From assembly GCA_027604685.1 (NCBI GenBank), contig JADHYX010000006.1:62001-126000 (forward strand): 64,000 nucleotides of DNA. Direction: 5' to 3'. The stretch's first letter is position 1, and each line of letters starts with the position of its first letter. A program made the translations under genes and the position numbers. Under the pieces are notes generated by a model. The model did no database searches. It saw only the letters and a list, made by a program, of their open reading frames with translations, and was not told the origin of the DNA. The DNA is from Lobulomyces angularis (Eukaryota > Chytridiomycota > Chytridiomycetes > Lobulomycetales > Lobulomycetaceae). This document shows, piece by piece, positions 3,121 through 49,640 of the stretch.

Positions 3121-4504
3121 TTAAGCTTCAAGCTGAAATCCTAAACCAATTCTACCTTGACCATCAGCTGATTTTCCATAATCAATTTCACCCGAGATCT
3201 AAGTTTTTTAGGAAAATATAAATGTAAAGTATGAAAAAAGAAAAATTACGTTGAACATTAACCCTGGAGCTAAAGTGTAATCAGCAGTACCACTAACCCT
3301 ACCCATGGTATCAATCATACCTCTAACTTGACTAAAAACTGTAACTAACTTAAATCCGACAGAGGCTATACCTTCTCTTCTACCAAAGCTGCCTCCTATA
3401 CCTGGAGTTAGCAATGATTGTAGTTCACAACAAACATCCAGCCTTTGATTTACTTTTTTAAAATAACTACAATGCAACATTCCCGAGTTAGGTGAGAAGC
3501 TTGCAGTATAAATTTCTGTTGGATCCAAAGGATTTACTAAAGGAAATGGGCTCGTAGAACCTAATGGTACTGTTGATGGAATGGGTAATTCAACTGGATT
3601 TGGAATGTACCTATAAAACTATTCAAAGAAAATTCCCAAAATTACAAAATACCTTCCAACTAAATTGAAACTTGGCTCTTCTTGATCAGGTGTAGGTCTT
3701 TGATAAAGAAATTCACCTCCCAAAGTTAAATTTTTTGAAACAGATTGAAGATAAGACAGAGTATACATGCCTGTGATAGTTGAGTTTTTAGATTTTAAGT
3801 TGTAAGACGGTGGAGAATTAAATGGATTCGGATTAATTGCTTTCAACGCAACTGAATAATCTACAAAAAAACAATTTAGGCACAAAAAAAAAAATGCTTT
3901 ACCTTGACCAATGTGTTCATGTTCCAATGCAATCATCGGAGGGTGCCCTTCTACAGTAGGTAATGAACAATCCACTTTCGTTTTTATAGATGGTTTTGGA
4001 AGTTGAGAAACTGGTACATCTGAACCATCAGGTTTCACTGAATCAGGCTTTAAAGCTTTTTCTAAATACCAGTTATAATGTGCTCTAGCTTGTAAGTTCC
4101 ATTTGCTATCTAATTGACCTGATAACCCGTACTTTAACACAGAAAAAAAAATTATTTTATAAATAAAAAGCCAAATATACATTATCGGTATTGTAGTTAG
4201 CACCAAAATGATATGTTGGAGGATATTCCTGGCCACCCCATTGGAGACTGTGAGTGACGTGAAAATTTGGACCCAAAACTGCAGCTGCATCCAACTTTGC
4301 TCCATCGATGAGGTGCAAAGTAGGTAAAGTATCTGTTAATTAAAAATTATAGTGATCAATTTGTTTACATTGAAAATAATAAAATAAAACAAGCAACATA
4401 CTTTTAACTTCTCGATGTAAAGTTTCAAATGAACCTGGGCATTGCAAATTTGATCTTTTTCTGTAATGGTTAAATCGTGAAAATAAATCTGAAAAATGTT
4501 CCAT
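3121..4504 (-). CDS. TOM40: Tom40, outer-membrane protein import channel
   Basis: Tom40 is the beta-barrel pore of the TOM complex, the entry gate for almost all nuclear-encoded mitochondrial proteins. Start ATG 4504 (MEHFSDLFSRF), stop at 3121, about 385 aa in roughly six exons. Family signatures: the N-terminal PGSFETLHREVK segment, VLGPNFHVTHSLQWGG followed by YPPTYHFGANY, GLSGQLDSKWNLQARAHYNW, GGEFLYQRP, and the last strand SGEIDYGK...IGLGFQLEA, which fits a beta-signal. Odd: after SFNLVGRY there is a proline-rich stretch (IPNPVELPIP to PLVNPLDP) of about 25 residues where Tom40 normally passes straight into the next strand. The gene is divergent to the RFC gene. Confidence 0.92.
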
Positions 4505-7632: not shown

Positions 7633-10600
7633 TTATTTAATATCAGTATTTGAAAATATTATTTTTCTCAATGTTGGTATAAACTTCAAACCTCCATTAA
7701 CTTTCAAGCCGTGCAGGGTGCTAGTATAGGTTTTAGAGTTGGGTAAAGGGTAATATTGTTTTTTTCCGGTGTTATGGTTCTCTAAGGATGCTTTGAGAAT
7801 GTAAATTACTTTTTCAAATTTTTTAAAATGGCATAGTGCCTCAATATAGGAAGTTAATACATTGGAGTCTAGGTTTACTGTATAGTCCAAAGCAAAATCC
7901 CAGATAAATTCTAAATCCTCATACAAGTTTCCATGTTTGCATGCATCTAAAGCCACAGAAAACATGATGTTGCTAGCAGTTTCATTGGGCAAATTAAGTT
8001 CTTTAATTTTTACTGGTAAATCAGGGGGATCCAGCCCACCAAATGTACCAGTTAATTTGCGAAATATGTATACAGCCGTAGGATTATCATTACAATATGA
8101 AAAACATGTCATTATGGAAGTCCATGTGGAAATATCTGGAGAAATAGAAAGACCAAAAAATTCCTTCATATTGCTGATTAGAAGTTCTTTAGCCTCATCC
8201 AAATTTTGAAATTTTCCCACACTACTGAAATATAGAATGTTGTAAGTTATGATGTTCGGTGTTAAACCTTCTTTTAACAATTCCTCTGCATAGCGAAAGG
8301 CTTTAACAACATCATCCTTTATTGCACTGGCAATCAAAGTGTTATACGTTACAATATCAGGTTTGATTCCGGATGACACCAGTTTCTCAAAGTATACATC
8401 AACTTTTTTTGCATCAGCCAATTTCGAATAGCAACTCAACAAAATATTATATGTAAACAAGTCAGGAGCAACGCCACACTCTTGCATGTAATGAAAGTAG
8501 TATTCTACTTTTCCAACATCCTTTTCATTTGCAAATCCACGAATTATATTGTTAAATGTTGTAACATCAACGTTGAGTTTGCTATTAAAAATTAAATCAA
8601 GAGTTTCATTAACCATTAACAAATCTTTTTGTTTAGAATAGTAATTAAAAATTGCATCGTTGGTGAAGGAGCTCCTCTCTATTTTATCCACATTTATTTT
8701 TCTTATAAAAAATTCGACTTTATCTCGGTTATTAACTTTAGAATAAATCCTAATTAAAGCTGTATAAATAAATTCATTAAGTGCTATGCCTTGTGTCTGC
8801 ATTTCTTGAAGCAAAAATTCAACTCTCCAAATATTATTTTCAGAGCTGCTGATTAATGCACCATACAAGTGAGCATCGGGTTTAATGCCTTCCTTTTCTA
8901 ATTCTTCAAAATAAAAAAAAACCTTTTTTTCATTTTTCACTTTTGAAAAAGCTTTGATAAGTATGTCAAAGGTCTTGATGTCAGGTTTCAAATCATTTGC
9001 TATCATTTTCTGATAATACCTCTCACCACAATTCCGCTGATTATTTAAAACGTATGCTTCAATGATCGCATTATATACGGGGACATCAAACGTTATACTA
9101 TCTTTCTGCATTTGCAGTATAATATCTTCAACTTTTTTTAAATTCTTTAAAATTGAGTACATTTTTATTAAAGAGCAGTAAATGTGATGATCTAACTTGA
9201 TGCCTCCTGCCACCATGTATTTCACTATCTCATCCACTTGTTGAAGATCACCAACTTTTGTAAAGGCAGCAACAATGGAGGAAAGAAGTTTTTGATTCAG
9301 CTTAAATCCCTTGGTTTTCACTTCCTTCAGGTAATAACCCACTTTTTTTAAATTATTAAATCCTAAAAATGCACCAATTACGATATGGTAAGTTACATTG
9401 CAAGGGGTAAAGCCGGTAACGTAAAAATTTTGTAAGTACTGTGTAAATTTTGGCATATTCCGAGAATGGACTTTCAATATAGTATTAAAGGTGCTATGCT
9501 CTGGTAATATTGACATTGACTGCATCTCGTTAAAAAAATACAAAATTTCATCCTCATTGCTTACTTTTGCATAAGCAATTAATAATGCATTGTAATTCAA
9601 TTTGGACAATAAATTAAACTTTTTGGCTTGCTGATAGTAATACTGCACCTTTTCTATGTGTCCTTCCACACTATGCGCAGTAATCAAAAAATTGATGCTA
9701 ACTATACTAGGAACCAGCTTCATTAAAGCCATTTTATCAAAATAATATTCAGCCTTTTCTAAATTTTTGTTTTTTATTTCAGCTTTAATTAGCACTTCGT
9801 AGTTTTTTGAAATTGGTTTAATTCCACTTGCAAGCATGGCTTTAAAATGCTGTTCCACCCGTCTACTACTCTGCTTGTAAGAGCTCTGCATGTAAAAGTA
9901 CATAATTGCGTTTGGCTTTATCTTCTCGGCAGTTAGATGCCTCCAATACACTGAACATCTATCTGGACGAAACCTCCATGAAAAATATCTTAAAATTAAT
10001 TCATAAAACGTTACACGAGAAATTTGTGTCATATTCAAGATTTCAAATAGTTCGCTTTCGGCAATACTGTAATCTGTAACAAAATTATTCAGAGATTTGT
10101 TTAATATTTTTTCATCTCGTATAATATGTCCCAATGCTATAAGGGATCGTAAATAAAAATAAATTCTATTGACTTCTAATTCGTTGCTTGCGACCTCGTC
10201 TAGCAGAAGGTCTTTGTTGTCGATAAACTGAAAAACATTCTTAGGTAATGAATCTTTGAAAGATGCGTTTGGTATATTTCTCTACAAATTAAAAAAAAGT
10301 TCATTAAAGATATTTTAGTTACGTTTTGTACATAGTTAATCCCAAAGAGTAAAATCTCCTCAACATTGGCAGCTAAAATCTCGCATTTTGATGAGAGGCT
10401 CTTTAAAAGATCCTCCTTCCTCCCAGTTGGAGCATTTGTTGTGTTTAAAATAATATCCTTCAAATGAAATTTTACCAAATCTTTAATTTTAAAATTAACA
10501 TAAAAGTTTAAAAAGCAAGAAAGAATTTTTTTATTTAAATTGTTTGGAGTTATGCTGTCAAAGCAGTATTTCACAAGGGTTATATCTTGATGTTTCATAA

Positions 10601-12654
10601 AAATATTGGATAATAAATAGATGGTTTCTTCATCAAATTTTACGTCTCTTGACCGCATATATTGAAATAACCTATCTACCTTCGTAATCGACGCATCAGA
10701 TTCCAAAATAAGTTCAAAAGCCGTGTTGTAATGATCTGTGGTGAAATTCAAACCTTTTTCAGTTGAAGTTTGATAAAATAATTTAGCATTCGATTCAGAT
10801 GACAACAAAAATACTCCCATTAAATTTAAATAAGTAATACGATCTGGTTGCACATTACAAGATTCCATCATATCAAATGCTTTAACAGCGCTATTCACGT
10901 CGGTATGGCTCTTAATCCATATATTCAAAATAGCAACATTTGGAACAATTTTGAAATCTTTCAATTTTTTAAAATAAAATATTATACTCTGTTTGTCATT
11001 GATACTTTCCAAAAATTTAAAAAGCCTTGTGAATAAGTTAATATCAGGGTCCTTAATTAAGGAAAAAAACTTAAAATATTCCCTTGACATTAAGTTTTTA
11101 GAAAGATAGTCTAGAATCAAGTGCAACTGATTGCTATGCACTGCAATTTGAAGAAAATTCGAGATAAAATTTTTTAAATTCACTTCTACGTCACCCAAAG
11201 TCTAAAAAGAAAATTAATTAGAATCAATAACGATACTTAATAGTTACATTAATACCTGGGGCATCCACCAACAATTTTTGGAGTTGAAGATTGCGAGTAT
11301 GTGTAATACTATTAACAGCAACAAAATTTTCATCGATATAAAGATCAATCTTTTCTAAATATACTTTTAAAAGAACACTCCAACTCATATCCAGAATCAA
11401 GTTATTTGATATCAATATCTTTATGTAAGTTTCCAGTTTGTAAAAAAACTTATTTCGATAATAGTATTCTAAAATGAAAGCATTATTGGCTTTGTTTGGA
11501 AATAAATTCCTTGACAGCATTTCCTTTAAATAATTTTCGGCTTTCAAAACTTGGTTGCTGATTAAAAGTGCATTGATTAGTGAATTGTAGGAAGCTGCAT
11601 CTGGTTGTAGGCCGTTCCTCGAAATTTCTTTAAAGTAAAACTCGGATTCTGTAGCGTTAACGGTGGAAAACGCTTGTATCAAACAATTAAAATGAAACTT
11701 ATTAGGTTTGATGTGATGTTCCATAATTCCAAATAAGAAATCCTTCACTGATTCTATATCGTTATTAACGGAAAAATAATTAATTAATGTAGAAAAGCTT
11801 AAGTCTCTAGAAATGTTTTTTGCCATCATGTCTTTTAAATAAAAATCAATTTGGTGATAGTCTCTAACTTCAGCGCAGTATTTAATTGATGCATCGTATG
11901 CATAAGCAGCAGGTTGAAATTTGTTATTTATCATATATCTGCAAAAATACTCCAATTTTCCAAACCGCTTTTCTTTAAAACAAGCAGCAATTATTACATT
12001 AAATGTTTCGCTATTTGGTCTAACATCGTTAAATTGTGAATCGTTAAATAATTTTATAACCATAGAAGATTGAGAGTGTTCCAAGTAACAATTCATCATT
12101 CTATTGTAAATGTAAATGCTTGGCTTTATTTTAGCAGTGAGCAGACAACCAAAGTAGTAGGTTACTTTTCTTCGATTTAATGAAATTGTGTAATGGTTAA
12201 TAAGTGGTAGATAATGTGAAATACTTGGATATTTAATTGAATTCAATAAAGTTGACAAATTTTCCTCACACTCATTTGCTGCTAAGAATGCCAGATAATA
12301 ACCAGTGATTGAAGGTGAAACCTTATTTTGTGCAGATTTATAGTTAAAATAACTAATTACCTCTTTTATAGTGGAATAACCAGACTGCATCATGAACATC
12401 AGTTTTGAATCAGACAAGTTGGAATCCTCCAGCAAAGATACAGTTTTCGTTGATAAATCACTCTCAGGTATTTTATCTTCAGTAAGTTTTTTCTCGTTAA
12501 TGGTTACCACTGTATAAACGTTTGAAAAAAAACGTTTAAGAGATGTCCCTTCAGTTGGCGGAAGGTTTTCTGATGAAAATTTTAGACTTTTATGAGGGAA
12601 CTACGCAAGAACAATTTATTAGATCGTTGTAAAAGGCTGAATTATTACATACAT
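7633..12654 (-). CDS. very large pentatricopeptide repeat (PPR) protein, about 1,628 aa
   Basis: PPR proteins bind single-stranded RNA, usually organelle transcripts, one base per ~35-residue helical hairpin. Three long open frames join as one gene: exon 1 12654-12649 (Met-Tyr), exon 2 12600-11248, exon 3 11201-10323, exon 4 10281-7633. The introns are 48, 46 and 41 nt (gtaata/gtaact/gtaact...tag), all in phase 0. The N-terminus is basic and Ser/Thr-rich, fitting mitochondrial import. At least 30 P-type repeats can be picked out by eye, densest and most regular in the last 750 residues (e.g. FTYNILLSCYSKLADAKKVD, VTYNTLIASAIKDDVVKAFR). No extra catalytic domain (SMR, DYW, PRORP nuclease) is visible. 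The best repeats often pair Asn at the base-selecting position with Asp at the repeat end, which in the plant code prefers U. Target unknown. Confidence 0.85.
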
Positions 12655-12908: not shown

Positions 12909-14239
<1,331 letters not shown>

Positions 14240-45222: not shown

Positions 45223-47081
45223 ATGGACGAAACCTATGGTTTTATTTCTAAATTTCTGCAATTTACTAACCCGAAAAATTTTTTCAAAAACTAGATGTTA
45301 TCGTTTTAGGAACTGGTTTAACGGAATGCATTCTATCTGGTTTATTATCAGTTGATGGCAAGAAAGTTTTGCACATGGATAAAAATGATTATTATGGTGG
45401 AGATTCAGCCTCCCTAAATTTAACACAGCTATATAAAAAGTTTAGACCAGGGCAAGAACCAGCTGCCGTATGAATTGTACTTTCACTTAATTTTAGTTTA
45501 TATCTGTTTCTTAGGCATATGGAAGGGATAGAGACTATAATGTGGACTTGATTCCAAAATTTGCAATGGCTTCTGGAGAATTCGTTAACATTTTGTACCA
45601 TACCGATGTTACTAGATATTTAGAATTTAAGCAAATTGCTGGATCTTTTGTGTATCGGGATGGCTACGTTGCAAAAGTACCTGCAAATGATAAAGAAGGT
45701 GCATTTATTAAAAAAACACTTGTTTAATTCAACCGAATTAATACATTTTTTTAATAGCTGTGGTTAGTTCCTTAATGGGAATTTTTGAAAAAAGAAGAGC
45801 CAAAAAATTTTTTGAATTCATTCAAAATTATAGCTTTACTAATCCAAGTACTCAATGTGGTATGGATTTAAATACAGTTCCTATGGCTGATGGTATTTTT
45901 TTGGTTTTTGTGTTTAATAACATTTTTTTTATTGTGTAGTTTATAAATATTTTGGCTTGGAAGCAGGAACTAAAGATTTTATTGGACATGCTCTCGCTTT
46001 AGAAACCAATGATGACTATATGACTCAACCTGCTAAAGCGACATATGAAAAAATTTGCCTGTACATGAATTCACTTGCAAGGTATGGAAAATCACCATAT
46101 ATTTATCCAATGGTAAGATTTTTCATTATACCTGCATTTTTATGTTGTTCAAATTTTTTTTTTTTTTAAAGTATGGACTAGGTGAATTACCACAAGGCTT
46201 TGCTAGATTAAGTGCAATTTATGGAGGCACCTATATGTTGAACAAAAAAATTGATGAAATTGTTTATGAAAATGGGAAAGTTGTTGGTGTGAAAAGTGAA
46301 GGAGAGGTTTATTTATTACACTTTTACTACTTTTAACTTCTTTGAATATCTATAGATTGCCAAAACTAAGGTTGTTATTTGTGACCCCTCATATGTTCCA
46401 GACAAAGTAAATAAAGTGGGCCAGGTAGTTAGAGTCATCTGTCTGGTAAAAGAAAAAAATTTATTTGAAAATTTCTTATTTTGGTTGTAATAGCTCAACC
46501 ATCCTATTCCAGATACTGGTAATTCGGATTCAGTTCAATTAATTGTTCCGCAAAATCAAGTTAAGAGAAAAAATGGTATTGATAAATAATGATTTGACGC
46601 ATTATACATTTTTAGATATATATATTGCTTGCGTTTCAACTGCTCATCAAGTATGCGCCAAAGATTTTTATATTGCCATTGTCTCCACTTTAGTGGAAAC
46701 CTCAACACCTGAAAAAGAATGCGATGCAGGTTTAGCTCTACTTGGTATAGAATAACAGAAAATTATAATTCCTTATTAAAAATCAATTTTTTATTTATGT
46801 TTTTAGGTCCTATTCTAGAAAAGTAAAAAGTTAATTTTCTACTGATTTTAATTGAGTTTTTTTTTTTATTAAGGTTTGTCGATATCAGCGACATTTACGA
46901 ACCGAAAACTGATGGAAAAGAAGAAGGGGTATTTGTTTCCAAATCTTATGATGCTTCCTCGCACTTCGAATCAGTTTGTGCTGATGTTAAAAGCATTTAT
47001 AAGAGAGTTACAGGAAACGAATTGAAAATTGAAGGAAAAGTGAAAAAGATTGATGAGGATGGTGCAGTTACTGAAAGTTAA
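45223..47081 (+). CDS. GDI1: Rab GDP-dissociation inhibitor
   Basis: Rab-GDI removes GDP-bound, geranylgeranylated Rab proteins from membranes and recycles them to donor compartments. Start ATG 45223 (MDETY), where a gtttta...ctag intron after five codons leads into [19 protein letters not shown]. Stop 47079-47081, about 450 aa in roughly 11 exons, the normal size. Signatures: [38 protein letters not shown] (Rab-binding platform), [40 protein letters not shown] and [19 protein letters not shown]. The sequence conservation sites of GDI rather than REP (no long insert) are kept. It serves Rabs such as the Rab4 encoded about 18 kb away. Confidence 0.96.
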
Positions 47082-47364
47082 ATTGAGAAGTTTTTTTTAG
47101 ATAATTTTTTTTTAGTTTTTTTTATCTAATATTATAAGGATATTATTGACAGTGAACAATTCTAAAACTTTCTTTTTTCTGAATAGGAGAAGACTAAAAT
47201 TTTTTATCAAATTTTTCTCAAATTTTGCATATCTACAAAAATTCAACACTCCCTCAATAATAACATTTGATATCATTGAAAAGTAGATTTAAAGCAAAAA
47301 TCTTTCATTTATTTACATTAAGCCAGTTTTATTCTTTTTTAAGAAGTAGATAAGTCCATATAAA

Positions 47365-49640
47365 ATGGAGATTTTAAAAGAGGTTTCTAATTTGTATGTA
47401 ACACTTTTTAAAAAAATTAACATTGTTTAGCTGGCTAGATAACCTTTACAATTATTTAACAACTAGACATCCACATAAATCGTATACTGCTCTTCTTGAA
47501 AGAGCGACCAATTATTCTCAATGGCATGGTACTGAAAAAACTTAATAAGTAGAAATTCATTCTTTTTAGCTGCTGCAGAGCGATTAGATAAATTTGATAA
47601 AAAAGTTGTTGCATGGAAAAATGATCCTGTCTCACCTTATTATGAGTATCAATTGATACAAGATAGGTATTTTCTTTGGAAATATCTATTTTACATTACT
47701 TTTTACCTGATTGAAGGTTAGATCAATTGAAAAAAGCAAGAGAAGCGAAAGATCTAAGCTCTACACTGTTTTTGCTAAGGACCAGTTTAACTAGAAATTT
47801 AGGAAATATGACGTCGGAGAAATTGCACGGAGTTTCCAAGGTAGGCACCAAGAAACTTATTGAAGGTAATGAAATCTGAAGAAAAAATAACTGAAAACTG
47901 TGTAAAGACTATATTTGCGAAGTTTGTTCACAGTTGCAAATCATTTGTGAAACCGATCATGGTAAATCTTATTGAAAATTAGACTTGAGTTTTAACGCAA
48001 ATTTTTTTTTTAAAATTTTTTTCCAGCTGATAACTTAAATCCTGATGAAAAATATGAATTTTTTATGAACACTCAGAAATCTTTTGGAAGGACCGCACTG
48101 TTACTTTCAGGAGGTGCCGTATTTGGTTTATCTCATATTGGTATATGATCAGAGATAATTGTTTTAATTTTTTTGATTAAAGGAGTTGTAAAAGCTTTGT
48201 TGGAAACAAAACTGCTTCCCAGAATCATAAGTGGTGCTTCTGTAGGTTCCATAATTGCTGCTGTAGGTTAGTCTTATTGTTGGTTATCCATTTTAATTAT
48301 CGAAATAAAGTGTGCACAAAAACCGATGAAGAGTTAGCTTATATACTTCATTATCCTAATAATATCAATTTGGATGTGTTTGAGAGGCCAGATGAACAAA
48401 ATGGCTGGCTTTTAATGTTTTATAGAATCTTGCATAATCATGTCGTGTTTGAAATTGAAGTATTAATAGATAGCATTCGTGCAAACGTTGGAGATTTGAC
48501 TTTTCAAGTAATAAATTTTTTTGCCTTATTCTTAATCATCATTATTAGGAAGCGTATTATAGGACCAGGCGAATATTAAACATAACTGGTTAGATTACTT
48601 CTCTTTTCTATTACTATCTATGTTTAAATTTTATCTTAGTTAGTTCTTCCACTTTATACGAAATGCCAAGGATACTAAATTATTTAACGGTAAAAAGAAA
48701 TTTTTATATTATCTTTATACTATTTATATTCAAGGCACCTAATGTGTTAATTTACTCCGCAGTGTATACTATTTAATAAACTATTTGGTTTAACATTTAA
48801 CAGCGCTGCCTCTTGTGCAATACCTGGTGTTTATAAATCGTACCCGCTAATGCATAAGGATAGAAACGGGAAAATTGGAGTTTGGAATCAGTCTGGTATT
48901 TTTTAATTAAAAAGGGAATATACTAAAATTTTTTAAAAATTAGGAACTAAATGGATTGACGGATCTGTTGAAAGTGATTTACCAATGGCAAGAATAACTG
49001 AGTTGTTTGGTGTAAATCACTTTATTGTTTCTCAAGGTATTCATTAGAGTCATTTTTTAATTCCCTTTTTTATTTGTAGTTAATCCTCATGTATTACCTG
49101 TTATGAAAGCCTTTTCTTTGCCCTTAGTGAAAACCACCAGTTATTTACTGTGGAGTGAAGTTTCACATTGGATTCAACAGGTTAATTTTTTTTTTTTTTT
49201 TTTTCTTGGAAAGTAATATTTTTTTCTAAGGCCATTGAATTGGGCCTTCCTGGAAATATATTGCAACGTGCCCAAAGTATGGTGAGACAACGCTACACTG
49301 GGGATATAACAATTATACCCTCTATTCCGTTGTCAAATTTGACTGAAATCATGGGAAATCCTAATCCGGTAAATACCGTTAATTATATATTAAGTTTATG
49401 TAGTAGGAACTCATTCTATATTACTCTTTATTGGGAGAAGCTGCAACTTATAAGCTGATTGGTAGAATAAAGACTCATTGCCAGATCGAGTTAGTTGTGG
49501 ACGAGATGTTGTACAGATTAAGAATTCGAAAACTTTCTTCCGATGAGGATCATTTAAATGGTCCTGCTTTTGGTGTAAGATCTAGATTTAAACAGGGAAT
49601 GGGTTTTACGCACCACACTAAAGGTTCCAGTAAAAATTAA
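47365..49640 (+). CDS. patatin-like triacylglycerol lipase (Tgl3-5 / SDP1 type)
   Basis: Serine lipases of this type release fatty acids from lipid-droplet triacylglycerol. Start ATG 47365 ([10 protein letters not shown]), stop 49638-49640, about 545 aa in some 15 exons. The N-terminal DUF3336 region spans roughly residues 10-130 ([50 protein letters not shown]). The patatin domain has the oxyanion loop [19 protein letters not shown], nucleophile motif GASVGS (GxSxG, as in plant SDP1), [13 protein letters not shown] and the dyad aspartate in [12 protein letters not shown]. The C-terminal part contains [18 protein letters not shown]. No membrane helix is evident; lipid-droplet location is inferred from the family. 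Confidence 0.9.

What the first reader, a model, noticed from the sequence alone, without database searches (positions are those of the whole stretch)
7633..12654. A single ~1,628-codon PPR protein with at least 30 tandem repeats in a fungus-like genome
Three long frames that look like three genes join through 46- and 41-nt phase-0 introns, each with a GTAACT donor, and a 48-nt intron adds a Met-Tyr starter exon. Known fungal PPR proteins usually have fewer, degenerate repeats; this one has a plant-like P-class array. Where repeats are well formed, the specificity residue is often Asn with Asp at the repeat end (e.g. repeats starting PVYNAI, TTFNNI, FTYNIL), which by the plant PPR code favours U. 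This suggests a long U-rich mitochondrial RNA footprint and a dedicated RNA-stabilising or processing role not described for this lineage.
Basis: partly seen in the sequence, partly recalled or inferred. Interest (0 to 1): 0.75.

Follow-up and report, generated by a model that had tools for sequence, protein, structure and literature searches.

The report
Giant chytrid RNA-binding repeat protein
One very long gene in the water fungus Clydaea vesicula encodes a chain of about thirty RNA-gripping repeats, and it belongs to a family of at least ten such genes in this fungus that share an end-piece for which no family model was found.

Summary
The gene is real. Three minus-strand exons plus a two-codon start exon join through 48-, 46- and 41-nt introns into an intact 1,628-aa PPR protein. 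A near-identical deposited protein, HK099_006038, names the species as the chytrid Clydaea vesicula and has the same start exon and 41-nt intron. A PPR profile built without this protein finds 21 repeats at E<0.05, 25 at E<1, 29 in all, in three blocks: "at least 30 tandem repeats" is the upper edge. The U-rich footprint is not supported: Asn/Asp pairs are no commoner than in paralogs (4 of 15; 16 of 56), and the decoded array names no target. Best reading: a P-class, probably mitochondrial RNA-binding factor of an amplified fungal PPR family, in a species whose mitochondrial cox1 is heavily split (6 pieces by Pfam, 14 by eye).

The parts
12649..12654 (-). start exon, Met-Tyr
   Evidence: same start in the deposited protein P0001
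12601..12648 (-). intron 1, 48 nt, GTAATA...GCGTAG, phase 0
   Evidence: consistent with the deposited protein
11248..12600 (-). exon 2 (aa 3-453), PPR block 1
11202..11247 (-). intron 2, 46 nt, GTAACT...TTTTTAG, phase 0 (the deposited protein implies a ~298-nt intron 11255-10958 instead)
10323..11201 (-). exon 3 (aa 454-746), PPR block 2
10282..10322 (-). intron 3, 41 nt, GTAACT...TTTGTAG, phase 0
7633..10281 (-). exon 4 (aa 747-1628 and stop): PPR block 3 plus C-terminal module
11389..12222 (-). PPR block 1, 8 listed repeat positions (aa 129-406)
10428..11042 (-). PPR block 2, 5 listed repeat positions, mostly weak, plus one unlisted 35-aa gap of repeat length (aa 507-711)
8254..9924 (-). 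PPR block 3, 16 listed repeats (aa 866-1422); 16 alpha-hairpins in the predicted structure
7684..8232 (-). C-terminal module (aa 1430-1612), found at 10 loci of this genome; about five further PPR-like hairpins with a 22-residue loop in the model (aa 1423-1623)

Best explanation
A single nuclear gene of Clydaea vesicula makes a P-class PPR protein. Its three blocks of alpha-hairpins wrap single-stranded RNA, and a conserved C-terminal module of irregular PPR-like hairpins caps the last array. Most likely it enters mitochondria and acts as a site-specific RNA cap and remodeller: it holds one stretch of a mitochondrial transcript single-stranded, shields it from exonuclease and so helps maturation, splicing or translation. 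It is one member of a family of at least ten genes, each presumably aimed at its own RNA. Shown here: gene structure at sequence level, repeats, predicted fold of exon 4, module, family. Inferred: RNA binding, mitochondrial location, transcript-specific role. Unknown: the target.
For: Intact spliced frame and an independent one-protein model in NCBI. Pfam PPR families pass their cut-offs in exons 2 and 4; exon 3 is just below (29.1 against 30 bits). 21 of 29 repeats individually significant with a profile from other loci alone. AlphaFold model of exon 4 with a 9-sequence alignment: mean pLDDT 80.4, pTM 0.51, regular hairpins; the best structural matches are plant and designed PPR proteins, several bound to RNA, e.g. 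6een with TM 0.89 normalised by that chain (0.33 by the model) over 312 columns. Ten loci with the module in the own genome; each of 9 modules is found by a profile of the other 8 at 62-166 bits. Relatives P0058 and P0073 have basic, acid-poor first 40 residues (6 K/R with 0 and 1 D/E; no control run for them). The mitochondrial contig C82 carries a cox1 gene scattered over ~22 kb with homing-endonuclease and reverse-transcriptase frames, i.e. RNAs that need processing.
Against: No RNA or protein data. The window protein's own N-terminus is not clearly a presequence: 23% of internal stretches are as basic and 27% as amphipathic. The code residues name no target. Both joins between the large exons fall in stretches without detected repeats, so repeat continuity does not itself prove one gene. 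The deposited model disagrees on the 46-nt intron.
Confidence: 0.75

Rival explanations
1. Two or three adjacent PPR genes rather than one: exons 1-2, exon 3 and exon 4 are separate.
For: Exon 4 alone (882 aa: array plus module) has the size and layout of a complete paralog (HK099_006026, 825 aa). The exon 2/3 and 3/4 joins lie in 100- and 154-aa stretches without detected repeats.
Against: The frames lie 22 nt apart (stop at 11224, next frame open from 11201) or overlap (10200-10281), with no room for a terminator and promoter; short GT...AG introns in phase 0 sit at the joins; a 39-nt intron is used next door in thymidylate synthase; NCBI's model is one protein across both joins.
Confidence: 0.05
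2. A narrower form of the best explanation: a splicing helper dedicated to the many introns of mitochondrial cox1 in this species.
For: cox1 pieces scattered over ~22 kb of C82, 6 by Pfam and 14 by eye, with LAGLIDADG frames in 7 and group II reverse-transcriptase/maturase frames in 2 of the 10 frames scanned; Rfam finds two group II intron domains; the Umbelopsis relative's C-terminal part weakly resembles Pfam MNE1, a mitochondrial splicing family (E 0.008, below cut-off); the module of 2 of 9 paralogs weakly resembles ATP13 (best E 0.0016).
Against: These Pfam matches are weak. The scan of C82 with the decoded array is at chance (34 of 60 controls as good).
Confidence: 0.2
3. A plant-derived gene gained by horizontal transfer, as was proposed for one PPR gene of Rhizophagus irregularis (PMC5982333, passages seen).
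For: Of the five hits with an organism name other than Clydaea in the whole-protein search, four are plants and one is the yeast Dipodascopsis. In the C-terminal search some plant proteins reach 36-44% over 20-37% of the query.
Against: In the whole-protein search the plant hits have 20-25% identity over 11-36% of the query; the five best own-genome frames have 27-31% over 468-703 aa; the full module is absent from the plant hits fetched (at most 22 bits) but present in Umbelopsis (54 bits).
Confidence: 0.03
4. A non-functional relic of a duplicated gene.
For: Ten loci with diverged modules exist and some PPR matches elsewhere hold a stop (C91, C185).
Against: The window gene is open over 1,628 codons, and the deposited copy, with 4 substitutions over the shared 1,544 aa, is open too.
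Confidence: 0.03

Closest known systems
HK099_006038, hypothetical protein of Clydaea vesicula (NCBI)
   Same: The same gene: same start, same 41-nt intron, 4 substitutions over the shared 1,544 aa
   Different: Lacks aa 451-534; no function named
P-class PPR proteins such as maize PPR10 and designed dPPRs
   Same: 35-aa helical hairpins, profile and predicted fold, N/D code residues in some of the better repeats
   Different: More repeats (about 30), a third of them degenerate, many code pairs outside the plant code as I recall it; extra C-terminal module
Yeast/Neurospora mitochondrial PPR proteins (Pet309, Cya-5, Aep3, Ccm1)
   Same: Fungal mitochondrial PPR proteins; the family profile reaches Aep3 (E 5e-13) and Ccm1 (E 3e-7) in the PDB
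   Different: No orthology shown or tested. Those species are credited with 9-15 PPR proteins (PMC7874006, passages); here 16 loci pass a Pfam PPR cut-off, but the two counts were made by different methods
Plant restorer-of-fertility-like (RFL) PPR families
   Same: Many copies with a shared layout in one genome, some clustered (3 of 10 on contig C6)
   Different: Fungal; lineage limits and code diversification not shown; no link to a mitochondrial conflict gene
JGI proteins P0037, P0057, P0058, P0064, P0068 (short contigs, presumably metagenomic) and Umbelopsis nana P0073
   Same: Same module at or near the C-terminus (54-107 bits)
   Different: 411-799 aa as held (some may be fragments); by eye several JGI ones have far more regular repeats

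Membership tests
P-class PPR proteins | Tandem ~35-aa PPR motifs matching PPR profiles | tested here: met
   21 at E<0.05
P-class PPR proteins | Repeats of one length class (no regular L/S alternation) and no E/DYW tail | tested here: met
   29 of 31 listed positions are 34-35 aa, the others 33 and 38, with a few overlapping by 1-3 aa; no E or DYW family in the Pfam scan of the three large exons
P-class PPR proteins | Sequence-specific RNA binding | not testable with these tools
   Needs a binding assay or CLIP
PLS/DYW editing factors | DYW deaminase domain | tested here: not met
   No DYW in the exons; none in the genome (but no control rang there, so that part is weak)
PRORP (protein-only RNase P) | PPRs plus a NYN/PIN-type nuclease domain | tested here: not met
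   Only the helical PPR_long region matches; no nuclease family over its cut-off (EXOG C-terminal E 0.035, below cut-off)
Pet309/Cya-5 cox1 translation factors | Orthology to those genes | not tested
   No direct comparison made; neither name is among the rows listed
Restorer-of-fertility-like family | Lineage-specific amplification of one PPR clade | tested here: inconclusive
   10 loci with the module; the 10 Clydaea modules lie on one side of a branch, weakly (70/85); other chytrids were not sampled well enough
Restorer-of-fertility-like family | Fast change at code positions 5 and 35 | tested here: inconclusive
   No repeat-by-repeat correspondence between arrays: in-register excess identity 0.010 (other positions, sd 0.027), 0.010 (pos 5), 0.038 (pos 35) over 7 repeats
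Mitochondrial proteins | N-terminal presequence | tested here: inconclusive
   net charge +3 in 40 residues; 23% of internal windows are as basic

The most novel reading that the evidence does not exclude
A fungal counterpart of the plant restorer-of-fertility families: a PPR family defined by a C-terminal module without a described family, amplified separately in Clydaea and in an unidentified lineage seen in JGI sequences, kept in step with a crowded set of mobile mitochondrial introns, each member policing or processing one selfish or intron-bearing mitochondrial transcript.
Probability: 0.15. Interest if true: 0.75.

Novelty: new variant of a known kind. Interest (0 to 1): 0.42.

Why it matters
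To my knowledge PPR gene families with a shared domain layout and many copies are best known from plants. A chytrid with at least ten loci sharing a C-terminal module, beside a mitochondrial cox1 crowded with introns, is a simple system in which to ask whether PPR numbers follow the load of mitochondrial introns. The module itself is a searchable marker for a fungal PPR family that reaches from Chytridiomycota to Umbelopsis.

Tried and rejected
U-rich footprint: rejected as a special property. Naming a target by the plant code: block 3 carries about 5 bits against about 17 needed, and its best match in C82 is at chance. Diversifying selection at code positions: the arrays do not correspond repeat by repeat, so no verdict. 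Plant HGT: disfavoured. C-terminal module as a known domain: in 9 members the only Pfam families under E 0.001 are generic PPR ones (best PPR_2, 1.6e-6; scores are printed for one member only); NCBIfam on four full proteins gives only the PPR repeat. DYW editing: no hit (nothing rang in the controls either, so weak). Presequence of the window protein: not distinctive. AlphaFold without an alignment gave a poor model (pLDDT 52.7) and was replaced by the 9-sequence model. Spizellomyces punctatus PPR protein P0030 lacks the module (best domain 7 bits).
Full report
What is there. On the minus strand of window 12654-7633 lie a two-codon start exon and three long exons, joined by introns of 48, 46 and 41 nt, all phase 0. 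Splicing gives 1,628 aa without an internal stop; the other two frames of the large exons carry 36/47, 28/30 and 79/94 stops, so the frames are not chance. A protein search returned the same gene as hypothetical protein HK099_006038 of Clydaea vesicula, a chytrid of the Lobulomycetales. The window's own assembly is unnamed; the species rests on this near-identical protein. That model is one protein with the same Met-Tyr start and no gap at the 41-nt intron; it differs by four substitutions and lacks aa 451-534, which implies a ~298-nt intron (11255-10958, my count) in place of the 46-nt one. I prefer the 46-nt version: aa 454-534 are open in frame while the other frames have 9 and 10 stops, the implied acceptor follows a purine run, the cut would fall inside the repeat at aa 507-541, and the neighbouring thymidylate synthase gene (Pfam) reads through when a 39-nt GT...AG intron is removed, so introns of this size are used here.

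Repeats. A PPR profile was grown from the window protein and other PPR frames of the genome. A version built only from 89 repeats of other loci finds 21 repeats in the window protein at E<0.05, 25 at E<1 and 29 at E<20; 200 shuffled copies scanned with the full profile give on average 0, 0.045 and 0.8. The full profile lists 31 positions: 8 at aa 129-406, 5 at 507-711 (with one unlisted 35-aa gap of repeat length), 16 at 866-1422, and 2 in the C-terminal module. An AlphaFold model of exon 4 with nine sequences (mean pLDDT 80.4, pTM 0.51) shows 16 regular hairpins matching the 16 repeats of block 3, then about five less regular hairpins with a 22-residue loop. Blocks 1 and 2 were not modelled. 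Foldseek's best PDB matches are plastid polymerase PPR subunits, PPR10 and designed PPR proteins, several with RNA bound. So the array is real and about thirty hairpins long, but in three blocks and with roughly a third of the repeats degenerate.

Specificity. The code residues do not support a long U-rich footprint. In well-bounded significant repeats the N5/D35 pair is 4 of 15 in this protein and 16 of 56 in the other frames. After correcting the register of a few repeats by eye, about 6 or 7 of 31 are N/D. Decoding block 3 with the plant code (weights of my own choosing) leaves about 5 bits of information where about 17 are needed to name one place in the 68.7-kb mitochondrial contig, and the best match there is equalled or beaten in 34 of 60 first-order random controls.

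Family. The gene is not alone. Searches of the whole genome with two PPR families hit places that I group into 18 loci, 16 with a match over a curated cut-off and two (C280, C91) only below. In BLAST the window protein's five best own-genome frames have 27-31% identity over 468-703 aa, and three more module-bearing frames align less well (C6_47k 22% over 824, C265 25% over 655, C172 26% over 292). Repeat by repeat the arrays do not correspond (in-register excess identity 0.010), but the last ~180 residues do: they form a conserved module with a core around LDSNVLTSYIEALC. A profile of any eight modules finds the ninth at 62-166 bits, and a search of the genome with the window's module finds 10 loci: window C6, two more on C6 (one = HK099_006026), C25, C384, C391, C265, C56, C497 and C172 (C172 weakest, E 1e-7). 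Three of ten lie on one 142.6-kb contig. In the module Pfam shows only generic PPR families under E 0.001 (9 members scanned).

Beyond this species. The family profile found 129 proteins, 120 listed. In each the module lies at or near the C-terminus. In a tree of 16 modules the ten from Clydaea fall on one side of a branch (support 70/85, weak) and the five JGI ones on another (96/97); Umbelopsis, C172 and C265 are long branches. This suggests separate amplification in two lineages, but the Clydaea branch is not strongly supported. The searches were limited to candidates sharing exact words and of similar length, so absence from other chytrids is not shown; the one Spizellomyces protein hit lacks the module.

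Setting. Contig C82 of the same assembly is mitochondrial: LSU rRNA, four tRNAs and cox1 on the minus strand. Pfam COX1 matches six separate places in order; by eye, from recalled cox1 motifs, I count fourteen pieces in order from 25.3 to 3.4 kb, each about 1 kb or more from the next, holding 12 TAG codons, most at places where I recall leucine. That would make at least 13 introns. Of the ten frames scanned there, seven hold LAGLIDADG and two group II reverse-transcriptase/maturase domains. TAG = leucine is already reported for chytrid mitogenomes (PMC6131824, passages seen). Such RNAs need protein helpers, which makes mitochondrial RNA processing a natural job for this family; this is inference.

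How it most likely works. Shown: gene structure at sequence level, repeats, predicted fold of exon 4, module, family. Inferred from the PPR class: the array wraps a single-stranded RNA and blocks nucleases or structure, aiding maturation or translation. Inferred from relatives: mitochondrial import (basic, acid-poor N-termini in P0058 and P0073; the window protein's own N-terminus is not distinctive). Not known: which RNA, and what the module binds.

Literature. One paper gives 15 PPR proteins for budding yeast, 10 for fission yeast, 9 PPR genes for Neurospora (PMC7874006, passages seen); my count of 16 loci rests on another method. Searches for chytrid or Chytridiomycota PPR work, fungal PPR work, Lobulomycetales mitogenomes, chytrid mitochondrial code and introns (12 of 112 listed) and Clydaea vesicula listed nothing whose title or shown abstract describes this family; I saw only search listings and the cited passages, and subscription journals are mostly not held.

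Verdict. A real, intact, unusually long P-class PPR gene; an ordinary kind of protein, already deposited unnamed. The new part is the C-terminal module and the multi-copy family it defines.

Noticed in passing
G000 C82:25291-3429 (L036-L038): Mitochondrial cox1 lies in pieces over ~22 kb (6 by Pfam, 14 by eye), with LAGLIDADG and group II reverse-transcriptase frames, and uses TAG inside exons, mostly at leucine-like places.
   Followed up: partly
G000 C82:35056-36286 and 67827-68249: Frames that look, from memory, like pieces of a family B DNA polymerase of a mitochondrial plasmid; not tested.
   Followed up: no
G000 C6:40368-41939 (-) and 46669-48904 (+): Two further PPR genes with the same C-terminal module within 30 kb of the window gene.
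   Followed up: partly
P0016 (NCBI HK099_006822, partial): The NCBI protein carries ion-channel domains (PF00520, PF07885) in front of the C56 PPR paralog, probably two genes merged by annotation.
   Followed up: no
G000 C91:20330-20434 and C185:21895-22020: PPR matches interrupted by a TAG stop, possibly relics or intron crossings.
   Followed up: no
window 12909-13439: Thymidylate synthase on the same strand, upstream of the PPR gene, with a 39-nt intron at 13294-13256.
   Followed up: yes
window 3208-4335: Porin_3-type frames, minus strand (the second frame is below the curated cut-off).
   Followed up: no
P0018: A PPR-matching protein assigned to an Actinobacteria bacterium metagenome-assembled genome; contamination or a bacterial PPR protein.
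   Followed up: no
P0037, P0058, P0064: JGI relatives with very regular, near-identical repeats by eye, which suggests recent repeat amplification in an unidentified lineage.
   Followed up: no
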